The notes beneath the pieces were generated by a model. It was not told the DNA's origin. It searched no databases and saw only the letters and a list, made by a program, of their open reading frames with translations. Source: Robertkochia aurantiaca (lineage in GTDB: Bacteria > Bacteroidota > Bacteroidia > Flavobacteriales > Flavobacteriaceae). Taken from it: a stretch of DNA of 64,000 bases. Location of the stretch: the NCBI RefSeq assembly GCF_020166495.1, contig NZ_JAINZS010000001.1, positions 434,001-498,000 on the forward strand. Direction: 5' to 3'. The stretch's first letter is position 1. Every line of letters starts with the position of its first letter. Below are positions 50,527-61,614 of this stretch, one piece after another. The translations under genes and the position numbers were made by a program.

Positions 50527-50592
50527 CTGAAAGTAACTTTTGAATGATTTAAAGGTAGGAAATTTTGGGATGCGGGGATGCGGGGATGCGGT

Positions 50593-50612
50593 CCTGCCTG
50601 ACGGCAGGCAGG
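50593..50612. repeat. Short perfect palindrome CCTGCCTG-N4-CAGGCAGG
   Basis: Two 8-bp arms separated by ACGG, placed between gggatgcg octamers and the ggttatt heptamer array. It may be a REP-like dispersed element, but no second copy occurs in this window. Confidence 0.8.
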
Positions 50613-50632
50613 TATGCGGTTATACAGTTATG

Positions 50633-50757
50633 GGTTATTGGTTATTGGTTATTGGTTATTGGTTATTGGTTATTGGTTATTGGTTATTGGTTATTGGTTA
50701 TTGGTTATTGGTTATTGGTTATTGGTTATTGGTTATTGGTTATTGGTTATTGGTTAT
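50633..50757. repeat. Perfect heptamer array ggttatt x17
   Basis: Seventeen exact ggttatt units plus a partial one (ggttat). This is the longest uniform array in the window. All three forward frames stay open and encode a GYWLLVI repeat, which is an artefact of the period rather than a protein. Confidence 0.98.
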
Positions 50758-51150
50758 GTAAGATATACATTCATCTTTGAACTTAAAAGATGATCGATAA
50801 TCTAATTATATGCTTCACTACACAATGTCTCGCCCATCAGATATTGCTTTTCAAAGTCATCTTCCCACAAAGGGAAAGGAGAAGGTACTTTTTGGTAGCA
50901 ATATTACCCATTCACCTTTAGACGGGCATGTCATCCTTATTGAAATCTTTGACCGATGGATCTTTCATGGTTTTATTCTTAGGAATCCGGTCTTCCGACG
51001 GCTTTCTTACCCATATAAAAGGTTAGAAATGACTTCACTTTTGATCATACCTGACTCAATTCCGAATTCATGATCTAACATCTACAATCTATCATTTACC
51101 ATTCATTACTTCCACTTCTTAACCCTTAATCATTAATAATTATACATTAA
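50758..51150. other. Spacer downstream of pabB with C-rich heptamers at its right end
   Basis: No convincing gene. A frame at 50810-51073 lacks domain character. From about 51080 to 51150 the sequence falls into 7-bp words such as catttac, aaccctt and aatcatt, the C-rich arm opposite the array at 50633. Confidence 0.5.
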
Positions 51151-52458
51151 TCATTCTCCCTCTAGTACCTCCCTCATCGCCTTCGCTTTTACCAGGCATT
51201 CTTCATATTCGTTCTCGGGAGTGGCCCTGGCGGTGATGGCGCTTCCTACAGAAAAAGACACATATCGTTTCGCCGCGTTGTATAAGATGCTTCTGATGAT
51301 CACATTAAAATCAAAATCTCCTTCCGGAGTGAAATAACCTACCGCGCCACTGTACAGACCTCTTTTGGTTTCCTCGAGCTCTTCGATGATCTTCATAGCC
51401 GAGATCTTGGGAGCCCCGGTCATACTACCCATAGGGAAGGTGGCTCGTATAATATCCAGGGGGTCTGTATCTTTCAGAACCCTTCCTTTTACCGTTGAGA
51501 TCATCTGGTGTACCTGCTCAAACGTGTAGATTCTGCAAAGCTCCTCCACTTCAACGCTTCCCTTTACAGCTACCCGCGACAGATCATTTCGTACCAGGTC
51601 AACGATCATCACGTTCTCTGAGCGCTCTTTTAGATCTCTGCCAAGCGCCTCTACCAGCATCAGGTCTTCAGCCGCATTCGAAGCTCTTCGGGCTGTTCCC
51701 TTGATCGGCTGTGAAAGTATCTGCTCACCCTTCTTCCGCAGGTATCTTTCCGGAGAAGCCGAGATCAGGTACCGATCCCTTAAACGCATATAGGTAGCAA
51801 AAGGTGGTTTAGAGATCGCATTAAGCCGCTGATAGGTTTTCAACGGATCTATCTCGGTATCCTCTGCATAAAACTCCTGGCAAAAGTTGGCTTCGTAGAT
51901 ATCGCCACGATGTATATGATGCAGTAAGCTGCGTACCTTTTCATGGTAGGCATCCTTATGAATACGCATGTGAATCTTTGGAACAGACCTTAAAGAATCA
52001 ACCTGCTCCTGACCTACCTCAGCACACCTCTGAATAGCATCAAAATCGTAAGTGATCTCATCATCGACCATGGCCAGGTACAGAAACTGAAGCTCATGGC
52101 CTTTCAGCATAATGATCTTTTTCGGCTGAAAGAAATACAGTTCAGGAAAACCCAGGCTGTCATGATTTCCTGACTGCAGGTTTTCAAGGTCGTTCTTCAG
52201 GTCATAGGTAAGGTAACCGAACAGCCAGTCGCCGGTTGTCTTTCTGTATTCTGCCAGTTCATCGAAAGCCTGATGATAATCGGTCTGCAGAGCCGTCAAT
52301 CCGTCTACGGCAAGAACCGCATCGAAGCTGCTGTGCTTTTGTGCATAATCATTGCTGTCGAGCCAGGCAACTTCCTCCTCTTCCCGCGCCCAGATAAGCA
52401 GGGCGTTCTTTATCTTTTCAGGGTTTTCTATATGGTAAATCTTAGTGCTTCGCTTCAT
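51151..52458 (-). CDS. pabB: Aminodeoxychorismate synthase component I
   Basis: PabB turns chorismate plus ammonia into 4-amino-4-deoxychorismate for folate. The 435-residue protein shows the chorismate-enzyme core (YEANFCQEF, SASPERYL, RNDLSRVAVKGSV, FPMGSMTGAPK). The PIKGTARR motif carries the Lys that distinguishes PabB from anthranilate synthase (PIAGT). I start at ATG 52458, since an upstream TTG at 52500 overlaps a -7 box (TAAATTTG). It is divergent from the arginine leader. Confidence 0.88.
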   Translation of the reverse strand: MKRSTKIYHIENPEKIKNALLIWAREEEEVAWLDSNDYAQKHSSFDAVLAVDGLTALQTDYHQAFDELAEYRKTTGDWLFGYLTYDLKNDLENLQSGNHDSLGFPELYFFQPKKIIMLKGHELQFLYLAMVDDEITYDFDAIQRCAEVGQEQVDSLRSVPKIHMRIHKDAYHEKVRSLLHHIHRGDIYEANFCQEFYAEDTEIDPLKTYQRLNAISKPPFATYMRLRDRYLISASPERYLRKKGEQILSQPIKGTARRASNAAEDLMLVEALGRDLKERSENVMIVDLVRNDLSRVAVKGSVEVEELCRIYTFEQVHQMISTVKGRVLKDTDPLDIIRATFPMGSMTGAPKISAMKIIEELEETKRGLYSGAVGYFTPEGDFDFNVIIRSILYNAAKRYVSFSVGSAITARATPENEYEECLVKAKAMREVLEGE

Positions 52459-52488
52459 CTGTTCTTGCTGCTTTTCCAAAAAAGAATT

Positions 52489-52496
52489 CAAATTTA
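52489..52496 (-). promoter_or_regulatory. Possible -7 box (TAAATTTG) for pabB
   Basis: An exact TAnnTTTG match on the minus strand, 31 bp before ATG 52458. No TTTG lies at the right distance upstream, so the promoter is incomplete as read. Confidence 0.4.
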
Positions 52497-52512
52497 ACAA
52501 ACAATAAATAGG

Positions 52513-52539
52513 TTGGTAAATAATTAATGTCTATACTTG
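52513..52539 (+). promoter_or_regulatory. Candidate promoter for the arginine operon
   Basis: TTG at 52513-52515 and TATACTTG at 52532-52539 with a 16-bp spacer; one mismatch to TAnnTTTG. The predicted start near 52546 puts the leader ATG (52569) about 23 nt into the transcript. Confidence 0.45.
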
Positions 52540-52568
52540 TCGTTCAATTCGCGTGGCGGATCAAAAAC

Positions 52569-52682
52569 ATGAAGAAAATAATCACACATATCGAAGCAAT
52601 TCTGAGAGGCCTTTTCCAGGCTACTCCCGCTTATGTGGTTATTCCTGTTCGCCGTCGTCCTATTCTGCGTCGTCGCCCGTAA
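52569..52682 (+). CDS. Arginine-rich leader peptide (37 aa), putative attenuator of the arg operon
   Basis: ATG 52569 opens 37 codons ending at TAA 52680-52682. The product starts MKKIITHIEAILRG and ends PVRRRPILRRRP. Residues 28-30 and 34-36 are all Arg, encoded by CGC and CGT codons (52650-52658 and 52668-52676). Six Arg in the last ten residues, the place directly before an arginine biosynthesis operon, and the hairpin 18 nt downstream match the layout of amino-acid leader peptides. Ribosomes stalling at the Arg codons when charged Arg-tRNA is scarce would change downstream folding. The reading frame is seen; the control is inferred. Confidence 0.78.
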   Translation: MKKIITHIEAILRGLFQATPAYVVIPVRRRPILRRRP

Positions 52683-52727
52683 GGGTGCACTATAACTTCT
52701 GGAACCCAGGTGAGTCCGGTTCCCCTT
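52683..52727 (+). promoter_or_regulatory. Putative attenuator structure after the Arg leader
   Basis: GGAACC (52701-52706) plus GG (52709-52710) pair with CCGGTTCC (52716-52723) around a TGAGT loop, with a 2-nt bulge. An alternative pairing, GGGT (52683-52686) with ACCC (52704-52707), would disrupt it. AAGGG (52681-52685) could also pair with CCCTT (52723-52727). There is no U-run, so if it attenuates it may do so through Rho or at translation. Confidence 0.45.
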
Positions 52728-52772
52728 CCAAGACCAGTTAAAATCCTATTAGTTACTTAATTATCACAGCAG

Positions 52773-53402
52773 ATGCACATTGTTGTTGCTGATGTTTCGC
52801 ATTTCCGCTTTGCTGAGGAAATTGTGGACACTATAGCCGATTCGGCAGAAAAGAGAGGTACCGGTATCGCCCGGAGAACCCCTGAATACATTCGCACCAA
52901 AATGACCAACGGCAACGCGGTTATCGCTATCGATAACGACCGCTTCGCCGGGTTTTGTTATATCGAAACCTGGAGTCATGACAGATTCGTTGCCAACTCG
53001 GGGCTTATCGTACACCCCGACTACAGAGGGCGCGGACTGGCCACTCAGATCAAACAAAAGGTTTTTGAGCACAGCAGGAAGAAATTCCCCAAAGCCAAGA
53101 TATTCGGGATCACCACCGGGCTGGCCGTCATGAAGATCAATTATGATCTGGGCTATGAACCTGTGACCTTTTCAGAACTAACCGATGACCCGACCTTCTG
53201 GCAGGGCTGTCAGACCTGCAAAAATTTTGATATCCTCACCCGAACAGAACGCAAAATGTGTCTCTGTACCGGGATGCTCTACGATCCGGATAAGAAGAAG
53301 AATGAAAAAAAGAGACATCCCTACGACTCCAAGACCTGGAAAAGACTGAAAGAGATCAAACAGCAACTGCTATTTAAAACGACAAAAAAACAAGAATCAT
53401 GA
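52773..53402 (+). CDS. GNAT acetyltransferase, probable N-acylglutamate synthase, with C-terminal Cys cluster
   Basis: The 209-residue protein has a GNAT domain with the acyl-CoA loop RGRGLATQI (residues 85-93) after GLIVHPDY. The C-terminal third contains Cys146, Cys149, Cys163 and Cys165 (CQTC and CLC), a possible metal site, followed by a Lys-rich tail. As the first gene of the arginine operon, overlapping argG by four bases (ATGA), it is the only candidate for the missing first step, acylation of glutamate. No argA or argJ is seen. A GNAT in this position has been implicated in that role in Bacteroides (from memory). Confidence 0.8.
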   Translation: MHIVVADVSHFRFAEEIVDTIADSAEKRGTGIARRTPEYIRTKMTNGNAVIAIDNDRFAGFCYIETWSHDRFVANSGLIVHPDYRGRGLATQIKQKVFEHSRKKFPKAKIFGITTGLAVMKINYDLGYEPVTFSELTDDPTFWQGCQTCKNFDILTRTERKMCLCTGMLYDPDKKKNEKKRHPYDSKTWKRLKEIKQQLLFKTTKKQES

Positions 53403-54586
53403 AAGATATCGTACTGGCCTACAGCGGCGGACTGGATACATCATATTGCGTAAAATACCTTTCTGAAGAGGGCTACACCGTTCACGCCGTGAGTGTGAAT
53501 ACCGGTGGTTTCGATGAAAAAGAGATCGAAGAGATGAAAAACAAAGCCCTGAAACTGGGCGCAAGCAGTTTTGAATGCCTCGACCGGGTTCAGGAATTCT
53601 ATGACAAGGTGATCAAATACCTCATCTTCGGAAATGTACTAAAGAATCAAACCTATCCGCTTTCGGTAAGCGCCGAGCGTATCGTTCAGGCTATGGCCCT
53701 GGCAGAACATGCCAAAAAAATCGGGGCCGGTTATATCGCCCATGGCAGTACCGGAGCAGGTAACGATCAGGTGCGTTTTGACGGGATTTTCCAGGTGGTT
53801 GCCCCTGAGATTGAAATCATCACCCCCATCAGAGACCAGCAGCTTTCAAGGGAACAGGAGATCGAATACCTCTCTCAAAAGGGGGTTGATATGTCATGGA
53901 ACAAGGCCAAATACAGTATCAATAAAGGCCTCTGGGGAACCAGTGTGGGAGGTGCAGAAACCCTGGGCTCCAAACTTCCCCTTCCGGAAGAAGCCTTCCC
54001 CAGCCAGCTGCAGAATATGGGTACAGAACAGGTGAAGCTTTCCTTCGAAAAAGGTGAACTTACCGCCATCAACGGACAACAAGACAGCCCGGTGAATCTC
54101 ATCCTGAAACTACAGGACCTGGCATCGTCATTTGCCATAGGAAGAGATATCCATGTGGGTGATACCATTATCGGGATCAAAGGGAGGGTCGGTTTCGAGG
54201 CAGCCGCACCGCTGGTAATCATCAAGGCTCACCACCTGCTTGAGAAACATGTACTCACCAAATGGCAGCAACAACATAAGGAATACCTGGCTAACTGGTA
54301 CGGGATGCTTTTGCACGAAGGACAGTATACAGACGAGGTCATGCGCAATATCGAAGCCTTTTTAACCGACGCCCAGAAACAGGTGACCGGTGATGTATGG
54401 GTAAGCCTTTACCCGTATCGCTTTACCCTCGATGGTATCGAATCACCTTTTGATATGATGCAAAGTGACTTCGGAAGTTACGGAGAGATGAATAAGCAAT
54501 GGAGTGCACAGGAAGCCAAAGGTTTTATCAAGATCCATGCAACCGGTTCAAAAATTGCTGAAGCCGTAAAAAACAAAGCATCATGA
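53399..54586 (+). CDS. argG: Argininosuccinate synthase
   Basis: ArgG joins citrulline and aspartate using ATP. The 395-residue protein begins with the PP-loop AYSGGLDTSYCVKYL (residues ~7-21) and contains HGSTGAGNDQVRFD for ATP binding. The C-terminal segments FDMMQSDFGSYGEMN and WSAQEAKGF are also present. It overlaps the genes on both sides by four bases, so translation is coupled from the GNAT gene to argC. Confidence 0.95.
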   Translation: MKDIVLAYSGGLDTSYCVKYLSEEGYTVHAVSVNTGGFDEKEIEEMKNKALKLGASSFECLDRVQEFYDKVIKYLIFGNVLKNQTYPLSVSAERIVQAMALAEHAKKIGAGYIAHGSTGAGNDQVRFDGIFQVVAPEIEIITPIRDQQLSREQEIEYLSQKGVDMSWNKAKYSINKGLWGTSVGGAETLGSKLPLPEEAFPSQLQNMGTEQVKLSFEKGELTAINGQQDSPVNLILKLQDLASSFAIGRDIHVGDTIIGIKGRVGFEAAAPLVIIKAHHLLEKHVLTKWQQQHKEYLANWYGMLLHEGQYTDEVMRNIEAFLTDAQKQVTGDVWVSLYPYRFTLDGIESPFDMMQSDFGSYGEMNKQWSAQEAKGFIKIHATGSKIAEAVKNKAS

Positions 54587-55570: not shown

Positions 55571-56719
55571 ATGGAACTATTCGACGTATATCCGCTCTAC
55601 CCGGTCACTCCGGTATCTGCCAAAGATATCTTTGTTTATGACGAAAACGGGAAGGCGTATCTCGACTTTTACGGCGGGCATGCCGTGATCTCGATCGGTC
55701 ACAGCCATCCGCATTATATACAACGCATCACTGAACAGCTTAACAAGCTTACCTTCTATTCCAATGCGGTTCAGAATCCGCTGCAACAGGAGTATGCCGA
55801 AAAACTGGGAATCCTTTCAGGTTGTGAAGATTACCGCCTTTTCTTATGCAATTCAGGAGCAGAAGCCAATGAAAACGCTTTAAAAATGGCCTCATTTGCA
55901 ACCGGTCGGTCAAAAGTGATCGCCTTCGAAAAGGGATTTCACGGACGAACTTCGGCTGCGGTGGCTGTTACAGATAATGAAAGCATAAAAGCGCCCCTCA
56001 ATAAATATCACCAAACCGTCATACTTCCCTGGGAAGACCTTGAAGCGCTGGAAAAAGAACTGGCTCAGGGGGATGTTTGTGCCGTGATCATCGAAAGCAT
56101 TCAGGGGGTCGGTGGTCTGCAGGTGGCTTCGAATGCATTTTTGCAAAGCATCAGCAGTTTGTGCAAGCGCTACGGAAGCATGTTCATAGCCGACGAGGTT
56201 CAGTCAGGATTCGGAAGAAGCGGTGCCTTCTTTGCCTTTCAGCACGCCGGAGTAACGCCTGATATCATACCCATCGCAAAAGGAATGGGGAATGGATTTC
56301 CCATTGGAGGCATACTTCTCCATCCCGATATAGAGGCCAGACATGGTATGCTGGGCACTACGTTCGGCGGAAACCATCTGGCTTGTGCGGCAGGCCTCGC
56401 CGTACTGGAGGTTATCGAGAGTGAAGACCTACTTTCAGAGGTGAATAAACAATCGGCATTTCTGAAAAAGCAACTTTCCTCCCTGGATCAGATCAAAGCT
56501 GTTAAAGGTCGCGGGCTCATGATAGGTATCGAACTTGAGTTTCCGGTGGCTGCTCTGAGGAAGAGCCTTCTACTCAGTCAGGGGGTATTCACGGGGGGCT
56601 CATCTGATAAACAGCTCATCAGGTTATTACCGCCCCTGACCGTTAAAGAGAAACATTCAGAGCAACTGACCCTTGCCCTGAGAAAAGAATTATCAACTGT
56701 AAATTCCACTACTCCATGA
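55571..56719 (+). CDS. argD: N-acylornithine aminotransferase
   Basis: This PLP aminotransferase (382 residues, class III) converts acylglutamate semialdehyde to acylornithine. Motifs: YLDFYGGHAVISIGH, CNSGAEANENALKMA, the PLP-proximal IADEVQSGFGRSG, the internal-aldimine Lys in PIAKGMGNGFPIGG, and TFGGNHLACAAGLA. The TGA stop overlaps the argF' ATG. Confidence 0.94.
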   Translation: MELFDVYPLYPVTPVSAKDIFVYDENGKAYLDFYGGHAVISIGHSHPHYIQRITEQLNKLTFYSNAVQNPLQQEYAEKLGILSGCEDYRLFLCNSGAEANENALKMASFATGRSKVIAFEKGFHGRTSAAVAVTDNESIKAPLNKYHQTVILPWEDLEALEKELAQGDVCAVIIESIQGVGGLQVASNAFLQSISSLCKRYGSMFIADEVQSGFGRSGAFFAFQHAGVTPDIIPIAKGMGNGFPIGGILLHPDIEARHGMLGTTFGGNHLACAAGLAVLEVIESEDLLSEVNKQSAFLKKQLSSLDQIKAVKGRGLMIGIELEFPVAALRKSLLLSQGVFTGGSSDKQLIRLLPPLTVKEKHSEQLTLALRKELSTVNSTTP

Positions 56720-57669
56720 AGCAATTTCATGACCTGAATGACATTACAGAAATCGACCTGTTGCTGGACAGAGCCCGTTCTTTCAAACGTGATCCTTTTC
56801 AAAAGGAATCGCTGGGAAAACACAAAACCCTGGGCATGCTGTTCTTTAACGCCAGTCTGCGTACACGAATGAGCACCCAGAAGGCAGCCAGGAACCTTGG
56901 AATGGATGTGATGGTATTAAACCTCGACAGTGACAGCTGGAAGATGGAATTTGAAGATGGCACCCGTATGCATACCGATAAAGCCGAGCACATCAGAGAG
57001 GCCGCTGCCGTGATCGGGCAGTATGCCGACCTGCTTGCCATCAGGGCCTTCCCCACCCTAAGCGACCGGGAAGCAGATCGGGCGGAAAAGATCTTAAAGG
57101 GGTTTGCTGCCTATGCCGGAGTGCCGGTCATCAATATGGAAAGCGCCACAGCTCACCCGTTGCAGGCCCTGGCCGATGCTTTGACCATTACCGATACCAT
57201 GGAGCAACTGAAAACGAAAAAACCGAAAATAGTACTCAGCTGGGCACCACACCCCAAGGCCCTGCCACATGCCGTACCGAATTCTTTTGTGAAGATGATG
57301 AAACAGCTGGAGATGGATCTGACCATCACCCACCCGGAAGGATATGACCTGGATCCCGGGATCACAGCCGGGGTCACCATCAACAAGAACCAGGACGAAG
57401 CGCTGGAACAGGCAGATTTTGTGTATGCAAAAAACTGGAGCAGTTACCGTGACTATGGAAAGGTGCTGAGCACAGATGCTTCCTGGATGATCACCAAAGA
57501 GAAGCTGGGGAACGCAAGGTTCATGCATTGCCTCCCTGTACGCAGGAATGTGGTGGTGGAAGATGCCGTCTTAGACAGCGACCAAAGCCTGGTCATCGAA
57601 CAGGCCGGCAACCGTACCTGGGTGGCACAGGCAGTGTTGGAAGCTATTTTGGGGAGGGGTGAGTGGTGA
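56716..57669 (+). CDS. argF': N-acylornithine carbamoyltransferase (acetyl/succinyl type)
   Basis: This 317-residue enzyme carbamoylates N-acylornithine rather than free ornithine. It contains FFNASLRTRMSTQKAARNLGMD with the carbamoyl-phosphate motif SLRTRMS (classical STRTR/SxRT position) and WAPHPKALPHAVPNSF, which occurs in the acyl-ornithine group. MHCLPVRRNVVVEDAV is also present. In Bacteroides the substrate is the succinyl form; I cannot say from sequence alone whether acetyl or succinyl is used here. The last residues Gly-Glu-Trp and the stop codon are written by a gagtggt heptamer array that begins at 57661. Confidence 0.9.
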   Translation: MKQFHDLNDITEIDLLLDRARSFKRDPFQKESLGKHKTLGMLFFNASLRTRMSTQKAARNLGMDVMVLNLDSDSWKMEFEDGTRMHTDKAEHIREAAAVIGQYADLLAIRAFPTLSDREADRAEKILKGFAAYAGVPVINMESATAHPLQALADALTITDTMEQLKTKKPKIVLSWAPHPKALPHAVPNSFVKMMKQLEMDLTITHPEGYDLDPGITAGVTINKNQDEALEQADFVYAKNWSSYRDYGKVLSTDASWMITKEKLGNARFMHCLPVRRNVVVEDAVLDSDQSLVIEQAGNRTWVAQAVLEAILGRGEW

Positions 57670-57723
57670 GTGGTGAGTGGTGAGTGGTAGATTGTAGATG
57701 TTAGATTGTAGATGATAGATTGT
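57661..57723. repeat. Heptamer array across the argF' stop codon (9 units)
   Basis: Four gagtggt and five agattgt/agatgtt/agatgat units in unbroken 7-bp phase. The TGA of argF' (57667-57669) spans the junction of the first two units. Confidence 0.95.
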
Positions 57724-58188
57724 AAAAAACCTCATAACCCTTAACTCGTAACTCGTAACCCATAACCGTATAACTGTAAAGTTGTTAATGGTGAGTCGTT
57801 AGTCGGGAGTAGAGAAAGGAGATATGAATGATTAATTGTTAATGTTTAATTATTAAAGGGAAGAATAATGGAATGGTAGATGACAAATGGTAAATGGTAA
57901 ATGGTAAATGGTAGATTATAAAAACCTCAAAACCGTATAACCGTAACCCGTAACCCGAAACCCGTAACCCGTAACCCATAACCCATATCCCAACACCCCA
58001 GAACTAACAAATGATTGGCTAATAGATAAATAGGCGAATTGGCGAATGATAAATGGTAAATGATGGATTATGGATTGTGAATTGTGGATTATAAATACCT
58101 GAACCTCATAAACTCCATTACTTCATTACCTCATTACTCCATTACCTCATTACCGAAAACTGAAAACTGAAAACCGAAAAACGAAAAC
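57724..58188. repeat. Three successive G-rich/C-rich word blocks between argF' and argB
   Basis: C-rich words (57727-57775) close the first element. A second G-rich block (57780-57925, with aaatggt repeats) is followed by C-rich words (57930-57990, acccgta type). A third G-rich block (58008-58085) is followed by C-rich cattacct words (58090-58155). Finally aaaactg/aaaaccg words run up to the argB start codon. No gene is present. Confidence 0.8.
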
Positions 58189-60030: not shown

Positions 60031-60203
60031 TGATTAATTGTTAATGTTTAATGATTAAGGAAAAGTGGAGAGTAGTGAGTAGTGAGTAGTGAGTAGTGAG
60101 TGGTAAATTGTAGATGGTAGATTGTAGATGTTAGATGTTAGATGTTAGATGTTAGATGTTAGATGTTAGATGTTAGATGTTAGATGTTAGATGTTAGATT
60201 GTA
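60028..60203. repeat. Heptamer array starting at the argE stop codon (~25 units)
   Basis: From the TAA of argE the sequence falls into 7-bp words: taatgat, taattgt, taatgtt, later gagtagt x4, then gatgtta x10. There is no phase change over about 176 bp, though the words change. Confidence 0.93.
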
Positions 60204-60242
60204 AGTTAAAGAACTTCATCAACTCCATCAACTTTATAAACC

Positions 60243-60320
60243 CCATAACTCCATAACCCCATAACCCCATAACCCCATAACTCCATAACTCCATAACCCC
60301 ATAACCCATAACCCCATAAC
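60243..60320. repeat. Octamer array ccataacc/ccataact (C-rich arm)
   Basis: Ten units, eight of 8 bp and two shortened to 7 bp. The array ends 10 bp before the argH ATG. Confidence 0.92.
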
Positions 60321-60330
60321 CAAAGAAAAA

Positions 60331-61614
60331 ATGAAACTCTGGGACAAAGGATATTCAACAGACAAAAAGATCGATCTCTTTACCGTAGGCAGTGACAGGG
60401 AACTGGACCTTCATATCGCCAAATATGATGTCATGGCTTCGAAGGCGCATGCCAAAATGCTGGCCAAAACAGGACTGATCAGCAGGCAGGAAGCCGAAGA
60501 CCTGATCGGTGCACTTAATATGATCAATGAAAGCATTGAAGCCGGTACATTTACAATAGAAGACCAATTCGAAGACGTACACTCGAAGATCGAATACCTG
60601 CTTACTGAAAAGCTGGGTGATACCGGAAAGAAGATCCACACCGCAAGATCGCGAAACGACCAGGTACTGGTGGCCATGCAACTATACCTGAAAGATGAGA
60701 TCAAGACGATCCGGTCACTGTCAAAGGAGCTGTTTGAGGTATTGATGCAGCTGGCTGAAAAGTACTCAACCGTGTCGTTACCGGGATATACCCATCTGCA
60801 GGTGGCCATGCCTTCTTCTTTCGGACTCTGGTTCAGCGCCTATGCCGAAAGCCTGATCGATGACCTGCTCTTCCTGGAAGCGGCACGAAAAGTGGTAGAC
60901 CAAAATCCATTAGGCAGCGCGGCGGGCTATGGCAGCTCCTTCCCTGTCGACAGGGAGTTCACCACCAAAGAGCTTGGATTTGAAACAATGAAGGTGAATG
61001 TGGTGGCCGCCCAGATGGGAAGAGGCAAAGTCGAGAAAGGCGTGGCCCTGGCCATAAGCAGTATGGCCGGCACCCTGGGAAAACTGGCCATGGACATCTG
61101 TCTGTATATGAGCCAGAACTTCGACTTTATCTCCTTTCCCAAAGAGCTCACCACCGGGTCCAGTATCATGCCCCACAAAAAGAACCCCGATGTGTTTGAA
61201 CTCATCCGCGGTAAATGCAACCTGTTGCAAGGGGTACCCAACCAGTTGTCGCTGCTATCGACCAACCTCCCTTCGGGTTACCACCGTGAACTGCAACTCA
61301 CCAAGGAGGTCATGATCCCGGCTTTGCAACAGCTAAAGGCTTGCCTGGAAATGATGCGCTTTTCACTGGAGAAAATAGAGGTCAATGCTTCTATCACCGA
61401 AAACCCCATATACGATTATCTCTACAGTGTCGATACCCTAAACGAAAAGGTATTGCAAGGAGTTCCCTTCAGAGATGCTTACAAAGAAATGTCGGAGGCT
61501 ATTGAGAATGGAAGCTTCGTTCCTAACAGAGATGTGAAACATACCCATATCGGCAGCACCGGAAACCCCGGCTTCGACCGGATCAGGGAGAAGATGGATT
61601 TTTTTAATGGTTAA
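60331..61614 (+). CDS. argH: Argininosuccinate lyase
   Basis: ArgH splits argininosuccinate into arginine and fumarate. The 427-residue fumarase-superfamily protein contains IHTARSRNDQVLVAM, LPGYTHLQVAMPSSFG and the signature loop TTGSSIMPHKKNPDVFELIR (catalytic Ser in GSSIMPHKKNP). The last gene of the arginine set, it is separated from argE by a 300-bp repeat spacer. Another array starts at its own stop codon. Confidence 0.95.
   Translation: MKLWDKGYSTDKKIDLFTVGSDRELDLHIAKYDVMASKAHAKMLAKTGLISRQEAEDLIGALNMINESIEAGTFTIEDQFEDVHSKIEYLLTEKLGDTGKKIHTARSRNDQVLVAMQLYLKDEIKTIRSLSKELFEVLMQLAEKYSTVSLPGYTHLQVAMPSSFGLWFSAYAESLIDDLLFLEAARKVVDQNPLGSAAGYGSSFPVDREFTTKELGFETMKVNVVAAQMGRGKVEKGVALAISSMAGTLGKLAMDICLYMSQNFDFISFPKELTTGSSIMPHKKNPDVFELIRGKCNLLQGVPNQLSLLSTNLPSGYHRELQLTKEVMIPALQQLKACLEMMRFSLEKIEVNASITENPIYDYLYSVDTLNEKVLQGVPFRDAYKEMSEAIENGSFVPNRDVKHTHIGSTGNPGFDRIREKMDFFNG

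What the first reader, a model, noticed from the sequence alone, without database searches (positions are those of the whole stretch)
52532..52772. Arginine-rich leader peptide and hairpin before the arginine operon: a probable attenuator
A 37-codon frame (52569-52682) starts ~23 nt after a promoter-like box and ends in RRR-PIL-RRR-P. Six of its last ten codons are CGC/CGT. A bulged 8-bp hairpin (52701-52723) begins 18 nt after the stop, with possible alternative pairings to GGGT at 52683. The next gene starts the arg cluster. The arrangement mirrors the His, Trp and Leu leaders of enterobacteria. Arginine attenuation by a leader peptide is not something I know to be described for Bacteroidota. 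The absence of a U-run suggests a Rho-dependent or translational variant. The ilv and leu operons here have no such leader.
Basis: partly seen in the sequence, partly recalled or inferred. Interest (0 to 1): 0.88.

Follow-up and report, generated by a model that had tools for sequence, protein, structure and literature searches.

The report
Arginine-sensing leader before arginine genes
In front of its arginine-making genes this bacterium carries a tiny, arginine-packed reading frame followed by two small RNA hairpins, kept in well over a hundred related species, which most likely lets the cell switch the genes on when arginine runs short.

Summary
The 37-codon frame (52569-52682), its six CGY arginine codons and the hairpin (52701-52723) are as described. 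Leader and RNA form a conserved element: hairpin P1, with the leader stop codon in its loop, then hairpin P2 with a UNNGU pentaloop. A covariance model finds it once per genome in 176 of 299 sampled genomes of the family. In 150 distinct copies examined the next gene is a GNAT gene (argG in view in 143). P2 covaries strongly. The 12 codons before P1 are 18% Arg in the leader frame, with no stop in 150 copies. Arg codons are CGY (88% against 25% in GNAT/argG); no other fourfold amino acid shows a third-base bias of that size. In 46 of 150 a second Arg-rich ORF lies upstream. No ArgR was found in 12 of 12 genomes tested. Best reading: a ribosome-mediated, Arg-tRNA-sensing attenuator that differs from the trp/his type, since no terminator was found in the window and no antiterminator in folding, although 11 of 11 hisG loci examined look like textbook his attenuators. 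The output step is unknown. New variant of a known kind; function untested.

The parts
52532..52539 (+). promoter -7-like box TATACTTG (consensus TAnnTTTG, one mismatch); predicted transcription start about 52544 (inferred)
   Evidence: sequence; box position -12 to -5 taken from PMC9723704; TAnnTTTG enriched before single leaders in relatives, 59 of 104 against 21.65 expected
52569..52682 (+). Arg-rich leader ORF, 37 codons plus TAA
52650..52658 (+). first Arg cluster CGC CGT CGT
52668..52676 (+). second Arg cluster CGT CGT CGC; its last codon is in the 5' arm of P1
52674..52687 (+). hairpin P1: CGCCC / GTAA loop (contains the leader stop) / GGGTG
52701..52723 (+). hairpin P2: 6-bp stem, short 5' bulge, GG:CC, pentaloop
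52711..52715 (+). P2 pentaloop UGAGU (UNNGU also in divergent copies)
52773..53402 (+). GNAT acetyltransferase, first structural gene
53399..54586 (+). argG
   Evidence: PF00764, PF20979
54583..55557 (+). argC
   Evidence: semialdehyde dehydrogenase domains
55571..56719 (+). argD-type aminotransferase
   Evidence: PF00202
56716..57669 (+). ornithine-type carbamoyltransferase
   Evidence: PF02729, PF00185
58190..58963 (+). argB-type amino acid kinase
   Evidence: PF00696
58960..60030 (+). argE-type M20 deacylase
   Evidence: PF01546
60331..61614 (+). argH-type lyase
   Evidence: PF00206

Best explanation
It is a cis-acting, ribosome-read arginine sensor (leader-peptide attenuator) for the arg operon. 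Transcription starts just upstream and the leader ORF is translated at once. When charged tRNA-Arg for CGY codons is short, the ribosome stalls in the CGY cluster at the end of the leader, sits on the 5' arm of P1 and keeps P1 open while covering the RNA; the operon is then expressed. When arginine is plentiful the ribosome reaches the stop codon in the P1 loop and leaves, P1 refolds next to the constant hairpin P2, and expression of the GNAT-argG and following genes falls, most likely by non-intrinsic (Rho- or factor-dependent) termination or RNA decay in the leader. Shown by comparison: ORF, codon bias, P1/P2 conservation and P2 covariation, context; searched for and not found: an intrinsic terminator in the window, ArgR in 12 genomes. 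Inferred: transcription start, stalling, direction of control, output step.
For: Leader frame: Arg 326 of 1800 codons (18.1%) against 5.1% and 3.6% in the other two frames; stop in the 12-codon stretch in 0, 63 and 70 of 150 (CGY-CGC of the motif excluded). Codon choice: CGY 287 of 326 in the leader against 398 of 1594 in GNAT+ArgG; over 20 codons Y3 within CGN is 288 of 301 against 398 of 761, while seven other fourfold families lie at 0.49-0.68 in the leader and 0.44-0.62 in background, the largest rise being Val (0.44 to 0.66). Structure: on 96 distinct aligned rows 97.1% of cells paired, 9 of 13 pairs with changes on both sides, covariation 0.295 against 0.122 shuffled, 0 of 500 shuffles as high. 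Stop codon 6 nt into P1 in 136 of 150. Context: 148 of 150 followed by the window-type GNAT, the other 2 by a different GNAT. One match per genome in 176 of 299 family genomes. Second Arg-rich ORF upstream in 46 of 150 against 0.4 in shuffles and 3 on the reverse strand. No ArgR (PF01316) in 12 of 12 genomes although 9 of 14 controls ring. Leader attenuation appears to be in use in the family for his: CATCAT runs and a GC hairpin with a T run before hisG in 11 of 11 loci.
Against: No expression data at all. In folding with simulated ribosomes P2 is about equally likely in all four states (mean 0.55-0.66) and the downstream region does not change, so the route from P1 to expression is not visible; that P1 is lost when the ribosome covers it follows from the mask and is no independent evidence. 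No terminator in the window. 17 of 150 copies have at least 5 T in 8 nt just after P2 and 12 have a T run of 5-7 within 14 nt, so P2 may act as a weak intrinsic terminator in some species. The window's own leader has an imperfect -7 box. The window RNA folds no better than shuffles. Copies share the nucleotide motif CGYCGCCCGTAAGGG, so the final Arg-Arg-Pro could partly reflect RNA conservation. P1 itself varies too little to be proved by covariation. The 18 genomes of genus g152 listed have no match, though 7 of 11 of their loci scanned show a different Arg-containing short ORF.
Confidence: 0.75

Rival explanations
1. Nascent-peptide arrest: the peptide ending RRP-stop stalls the ribosome in response to free L-arginine (TnaC-, SpeFL- or fungal AAP-like) and the stalled ribosome sets expression.
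For: RRP just before the stop in most copies; Pro-stop resembles the end of TnaC (recalled).
Against: Number and place of Arg residues vary widely; upstream ORF1 often ends in RRR or RRRF rather than RRP; some copies read past the P1 loop (14 of 150 by the script, 3 of them a parsing artefact) and L008 has a different P1 and no RRP; the Arg-specific CGY bias is a codon signal, not a peptide signal.
Confidence: 0.12
2. The RNA (P1+P2) is the regulator, for instance an arginine- or protein-binding element, and the Arg codons are incidental.
For: P2 inner pairs and pentaloop are kept through covariation, also in divergent copies; P2 formation hardly depends on the simulated ribosome.
Against: Arg enrichment and lack of stops extend well upstream of P1; Arg-specific codon bias; Arg-rich ORF1 further upstream in 46 of 150; no Rfam match.
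Confidence: 0.08
3. Translational control: the leader ribosome or hairpins open or close the GNAT start site.
For: Known for rbfL of S. aureus (PMC13009471, passages) and partly for speF (PMC6386406, abstract).
Against: Distance from P2 to the GNAT start varies from 40 to 98 nt in 148 copies, and pairing of the first 45 nt after P2 does not change with the simulated ribosome.
Confidence: 0.1

Closest known systems
orf34 (SpeFL) leader of Salmonella speF (PMC6386406; abstract and section list seen)
   Same: short upstream ORF whose consecutive arginine codons pause the ribosome at low arginine; translation interferes with Rho-dependent termination
   Different: controls ornithine decarboxylase, not arginine synthesis; involves RNase G and RBS sequestration; other phylum; P1/P2 not reported in what I saw
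Enterobacterial trp/his/leu attenuators (recalled)
   Same: leader ORF rich in codons of the end product before its operon
   Different: they have a U-run terminator and a competing antiterminator; neither was found in the window
His leader of the same family
   Same: short ORF at the start of a biosynthetic operon; codons for the product
   Different: his leaders end in a GC hairpin with a T run in 11 of 11 loci; for arg only 17 of 150 copies have a T-rich tail after P2
rbfL leader of Staphylococcus aureus (PMC13009471; passages seen)
   Same: small ORF sensing arginine limitation through Arg codons
   Different: rare AGA/AGG codons, translational block of a biofilm regulator, off at low arginine
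Leader-peptide attenuation clues before amino-acid operons in Flavobacterium psychrophilum (PMC9723704; passages seen, supplement not read)
   Same: same family; attenuation by leader peptides proposed in general
   Different: no arg element named in the passages seen; whether its supplement lists one is unknown to me

Membership tests
classical ribosome-mediated transcription attenuator (trp/his type) | short leader ORF rich in codons of the pathway product, upstream of the operon | tested here: met
classical ribosome-mediated transcription attenuator (trp/his type) | intrinsic terminator between leader and first gene | tested here: not met
   none in window 52450-53000; in 150 copies T is at most 62% at any position from P2 to 35 nt beyond, but 17 of 150 have at least 5 T in 8 nt after P2
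classical ribosome-mediated transcription attenuator (trp/his type) | mutually exclusive antiterminator set by ribosome position | tested here: not met
   P2 about equally formed in all four simulated states; thermodynamic model only
classical ribosome-mediated transcription attenuator (trp/his type) | amino-acid-dependent readthrough | not testable with these tools
   needs expression data
Rho-dependent leader-peptide attenuator (speF orf34, tnaC type) | translated leader ORF with Arg codons or a stalling sequence | tested here: met
   (coding evidence; translation itself not measured)
Rho-dependent leader-peptide attenuator (speF orf34, tnaC type) | dependence on Rho | not testable with these tools
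   a Rho_N match in a 587-residue frame in the own genome; dependence not tested
arrest peptide (TnaC, SpeFL, AAP) | conserved peptide sequence independent of codon choice | tested here: not met
   Arg positions vary, codons biased to CGY
described Rfam family | match at the gathering threshold | tested here: not met
   0 matches in the window; four weak eukaryotic-family matches in 52450-52800 at E 5-10, far below gathering scores
ArgR regulon | ArgR repressor in the genome | tested here: not met
   PF01316 in 0 of 12 genomes, own included; 9 of 14 controls ring

The most novel reading that the evidence does not exclude
A new class of attenuator output: the leader ribosome opens or closes P1, and this is read not by a terminator/antiterminator pair but by the constant hairpin P2, whose UNNGU pentaloop and inner two pairs persist through covariation, by means of a bound factor, a P1-P2 tertiary contact (the GUAA loop of P1 with the GG:CC of P2) or even the Arg-rich nascent peptide itself, with tandem leaders sharpening the response in bacteria without a detected ArgR.
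Probability: 0.25. Interest if true: 0.82.

Novelty: new variant of a known kind. Interest (0 to 1): 0.64.

Why it matters
Arginine synthesis in well-studied bacteria is known mainly as an ArgR-repressed system (recalled). Here a family in which no ArgR was detected (12 of 12 genomes) appears to use codon-level sensing of charged tRNA-Arg instead, through a conserved RNA element with no match in Rfam 15, often with tandem leaders and mostly without a terminator-like tail. It makes testable how Bacteroidota, whose translation initiation does not rely on Shine-Dalgarno (PMC9723704, passages), couple leader translation to operon output; in a group of relatives the leader start lies about 3 nt from the predicted transcript start (inferred).

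Tried and rejected
First pass read all loci as if oriented to the match; whole-genome loci are not turned, so results for the minus-strand loci were wrong and were redone with correct strands. RNAalifold on the 36-sequence MAFFT alignment gave only a CGCC:GGTG pairing without covariation because bulges misaligned P2; this alternative pairing (5' arm of P1 with GGTG of P2) cannot form in divergent copies with other P2 loops (L035, L041, L045, L046, L050) and was dropped as a general model. A covariance model on anchored sequences replaced it.

Considered and rejected: intrinsic terminator as the general output; RBS sequestration as the main mechanism; known Rfam element; chance or non-coding frame; general pyrimidine bias as the cause of CGY. 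The lead that six elements lacking GG:CC in P2 (L035, L041, L045, L046, L050, L311) also lack a GNRA loop in P1 was read by eye, several come from one family, and it was not tested.

Counts and drops: of 185 loci then held, 6 were set aside (L001 and L052, both copies of the window's own site, and L053-L056, weak own-genome matches). Of the other 179, 20 failed the pattern used to anchor P1 and P2: L041-L051 (10 outside family f1, plus L046), L035, and 8 that R1 had matched (L008, L149, L165, L166, L170, L171, L175, L183). 9 duplicates were merged, leaving 150. The P2 loop and P1 start were part of the selection, so their invariance is partly built in; Arg content, codon bias and pairing of the outer stem beyond 4 of 6 pairs were not. 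In some searches the bulge of each copy was chosen to maximise pairing, which favours the observed over the permuted values. In 3 copies (L006, L013, L022) the script anchored P1 at an earlier CGCCC, so 136 of 150 for the stop position is a lower bound. In one search, 96 of 100 chosen loci gave the element (97 matches; the second one in L086, E 0.22, is probably chance and stayed in the alignment); L041, L045, L046 and L050 were not matched. The 17 sequences that built R1 are among those counted.

Literature searches for a described Arg leader in Bacteroidota listed none that I could recognise from titles and abstract starts; the library is open-access PMC only, and the supplement of PMC9723704 was not read (no look-ups allowed).

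Full report
What was checked. The leader ORF, promoter-like box and hairpin are in the sequence at the stated coordinates. The ORF ends ...PVRRRPILRRRP-stop with CGC CGT CGT at 52650-52658 and CGT CGT CGC at 52668-52676. Two hairpins can be drawn: P1 (CGCCC 52674-52678, loop GTAA 52679-52682, GGGTG 52683-52687), so that the stop codon lies in its loop, and P2 (52701-52723). Both appear in the minimum-energy fold, but the stretch folds no better than shuffles (z -0.53; 53 of 200 as good), so the case rests on comparison.

Relatives. Searching 99 related genomes with the GNAT protein found 56 with a match; by my count from that table, 40 of the 60 family-f1 genomes have it. I examined 50 of the 56 loci. 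All 40 f1 loci were among them: 38 carry the P2 loop GGTGNG[T/C]CC, and the other two (L035, L046) carry a variant hairpin. Of the 10 non-f1 loci, 3 (L041, L045, L050, family f2) have an Arg-rich ORF and a variant hairpin, and 7 show no such hairpin. A covariance model R1 from 17 sequences hits the own genome once (E 6.5e-10; next 1.3) and 176 of 299 sampled f1 genomes at E up to 0.1, once each. None of the 20 GNAT-negative f1 genomes is among the 176. In an order sample 15 of 246 match: 14 in f1 and one weak f9 hit (E 0.0078) away from that genome's GNAT. In a phylum sample 12 of 296 match, all f1 and all already among the 15. A contig of G002, same genus as the window, has the length of Robertkochia solimangrovi L251 (258376), so the window's genus is probably Robertkochia.

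Coding evidence. In 150 distinct copies the 12 codons before the CGY-CGC of the motif hold 326 Arg of 1800 in the leader frame, 92 and 64 in the others; 0, 63 and 70 copies have a stop there. Arg codons are CGT 149, CGC 138, AGG 19, AGA 10, CGA 9, CGG 1. In the downstream GNAT and ArgG (partial) they are AGA 636, CGT 256, CGA 245, AGG 197, CGC 142, CGG 118. Over 20 codons, third-base pyrimidine among CGN is 288 of 301 against 398 of 761 in background; Ala, Gly, Val, Thr, Pro, Ser4 and Leu4 lie between 0.49 and 0.68 in the leader and between 0.44 and 0.62 in background, Val showing the largest rise (0.44 to 0.66) and Thr a fall (0.62 to 0.49). The leader is also poorer in G and A than background, so part of the CGY preference may be compositional, but the size of the Arg effect points to codon- or tRNA-level selection, presumably for the tRNA that reads CGY (that tRNA was not looked for).

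Structure. P2 stem pairs on 38 copies: 221 of 228 standard, permuted mean 180, maximum 195 in 2000 permutations; on 150 copies 876 of 900 against a mean of 715 and a maximum of 742 in 1000; the per-copy choice of bulge favours the observed values. On the 97-match alignment, 96 distinct rows, 97.1% of cells pair, 9 of 13 pairs show changes on both sides, and 0 of 500 shuffles reach any of the five observed measures (that alignment is fitted to the model). P1 varies little: one pair with a double change in one row, one varying on one side; its outermost pair fails in 25 rows. In the divergent copies L035, L041, L045, L046 and L050 the hairpin has different stems but keeps a U-N-N-G-U pentaloop (the pentaloop was the search rule; 0 to 7 of 500 shuffles have as long a stem).

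Context. 148 of 150 copies precede the window-type GNAT within 400 nt and 142 of these also show ArgG in the stretch held; the remaining two precede a different GNAT, one with ArgG. Distance from P2 to the GNAT start is 40-98 nt. In 46 of 150 a second Arg-rich ORF ends 127-168 nt upstream of P1 (shuffles 0.4, reverse strand 3). TAnnTTTG is found before 59 of 104 single leaders (21.65 expected by shuffling), and 35 of the box matches have an in-frame start codon 6-9 nt after them. With the box at -12 to -5 (PMC9723704, passages) that is a 5' end of about 3 nt, while that paper counts 5.5% leaderless mRNAs in F. psychrophilum. Before the tandem type it is 15 of 46 against 9.8 expected, a weak signal. 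The window itself has an imperfect box and an inferred 25-nt 5' end, so it is not of the near-leaderless kind.

Mechanism. With ribosome masks (150 copies) P1 is lost when the ribosome is placed at the stop or the last Arg codons, which follows from the mask, and forms when it is 8 codons upstream (mean 0.78; 0.71 without ribosome). P2 is about equally likely in all states (0.55-0.66), and the downstream 45 nt do not change. No terminator is found in the window leader; over the 150 copies no T run is common after P2, though 17 have at least 5 T in 8 nt. By contrast, hisG loci of 11 genomes (one of 12 had no hisG) all have a CATCAT run and a CCCG...CGGG hairpin with at least 4 T upstream; a four-His rule flagged 8 of 11 as His-rich ORFs. 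So the family seems to use classical attenuation for his and something else for arg. ArgR is absent in 12 of 12 genomes; Rho_N is found in 11 of 12, own included. I therefore favour ribosome stalling at CGY codons under low arginine as the sensor and a non-intrinsic output, Rho- or factor-dependent. The sensor is well supported by comparison; the output is open.

Genus g152. The 18 genomes of g152 listed have no R1 match; 17 of them have the GNAT gene. Of 11 loci scanned with an exact string, 7 share another short ORF with Arg codons about 275 nt upstream of GNAT. I suspect that g152 is Flavobacterium but did not verify it; two of the contigs that do carry the element bear that genus name.

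Known work. Passages of PMC9723704 mention strong clues for leader-peptide attenuation upstream of amino-acid operons in F. psychrophilum without naming arg in what I saw. PMC7366714 passages mention sORFs in long 5' UTRs of B. thetaiotaomicron. Term searches of PMC2965389 and PMC8632094 found no word beginning with bacteroid or flavobact. PMC6386406 (abstract and section list) and PMC13009471 (passages) give the nearest Arg-codon leaders. My searches listed no Arg leader of Bacteroidota that I could recognise; this does not cover subscription journals or supplements.

Noticed in passing
L331-L341, upstream of hisG (own genome: L337): His-codon leaders (for example MRNNNVHHHHIHYSAQAR in L337) followed by a GC-rich hairpin and T run in 11 of 11 loci: these look like textbook his attenuators.
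   Followed up: partly
L312, L313, L315, L320, L322, L323, L325, about 275 nt upstream of GNAT: Genus g152 (perhaps Flavobacterium, not verified) lacks P1/P2 but has a different conserved short ORF (..SRTNRPSTSPEVRML.. in L323) with CGG/AGA Arg codons starting a few nt after a TAnnTTTG-like box, in 7 of 11 loci scanned.
   Followed up: partly
46 of 150 loci, for example L005, L026, L009: A further Arg-rich ORF upstream of the leader, often with a small hairpin at its stop codon and a T-rich stretch before the second leader (seen by eye).
   Followed up: partly
L069 and L113: The usual GNAT is replaced by a different GNAT-like protein behind the same leader, suggesting a swap of the acyltransferase step.
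   Followed up: no
window 50540-50790, 57571-57979 and 60187-60365: ORF listings in intergenic gaps show GYWLLVI-, YHLPFTIYHL- and MGLWSYGV-like repeats, i.e. short tandem DNA repeats (no repeat finder run).
   Followed up: no
window 52773-53402: The GNAT gene at the head of the operon may supply the N-acylglutamate synthase step of arginine synthesis (inference, not tested).
   Followed up: no
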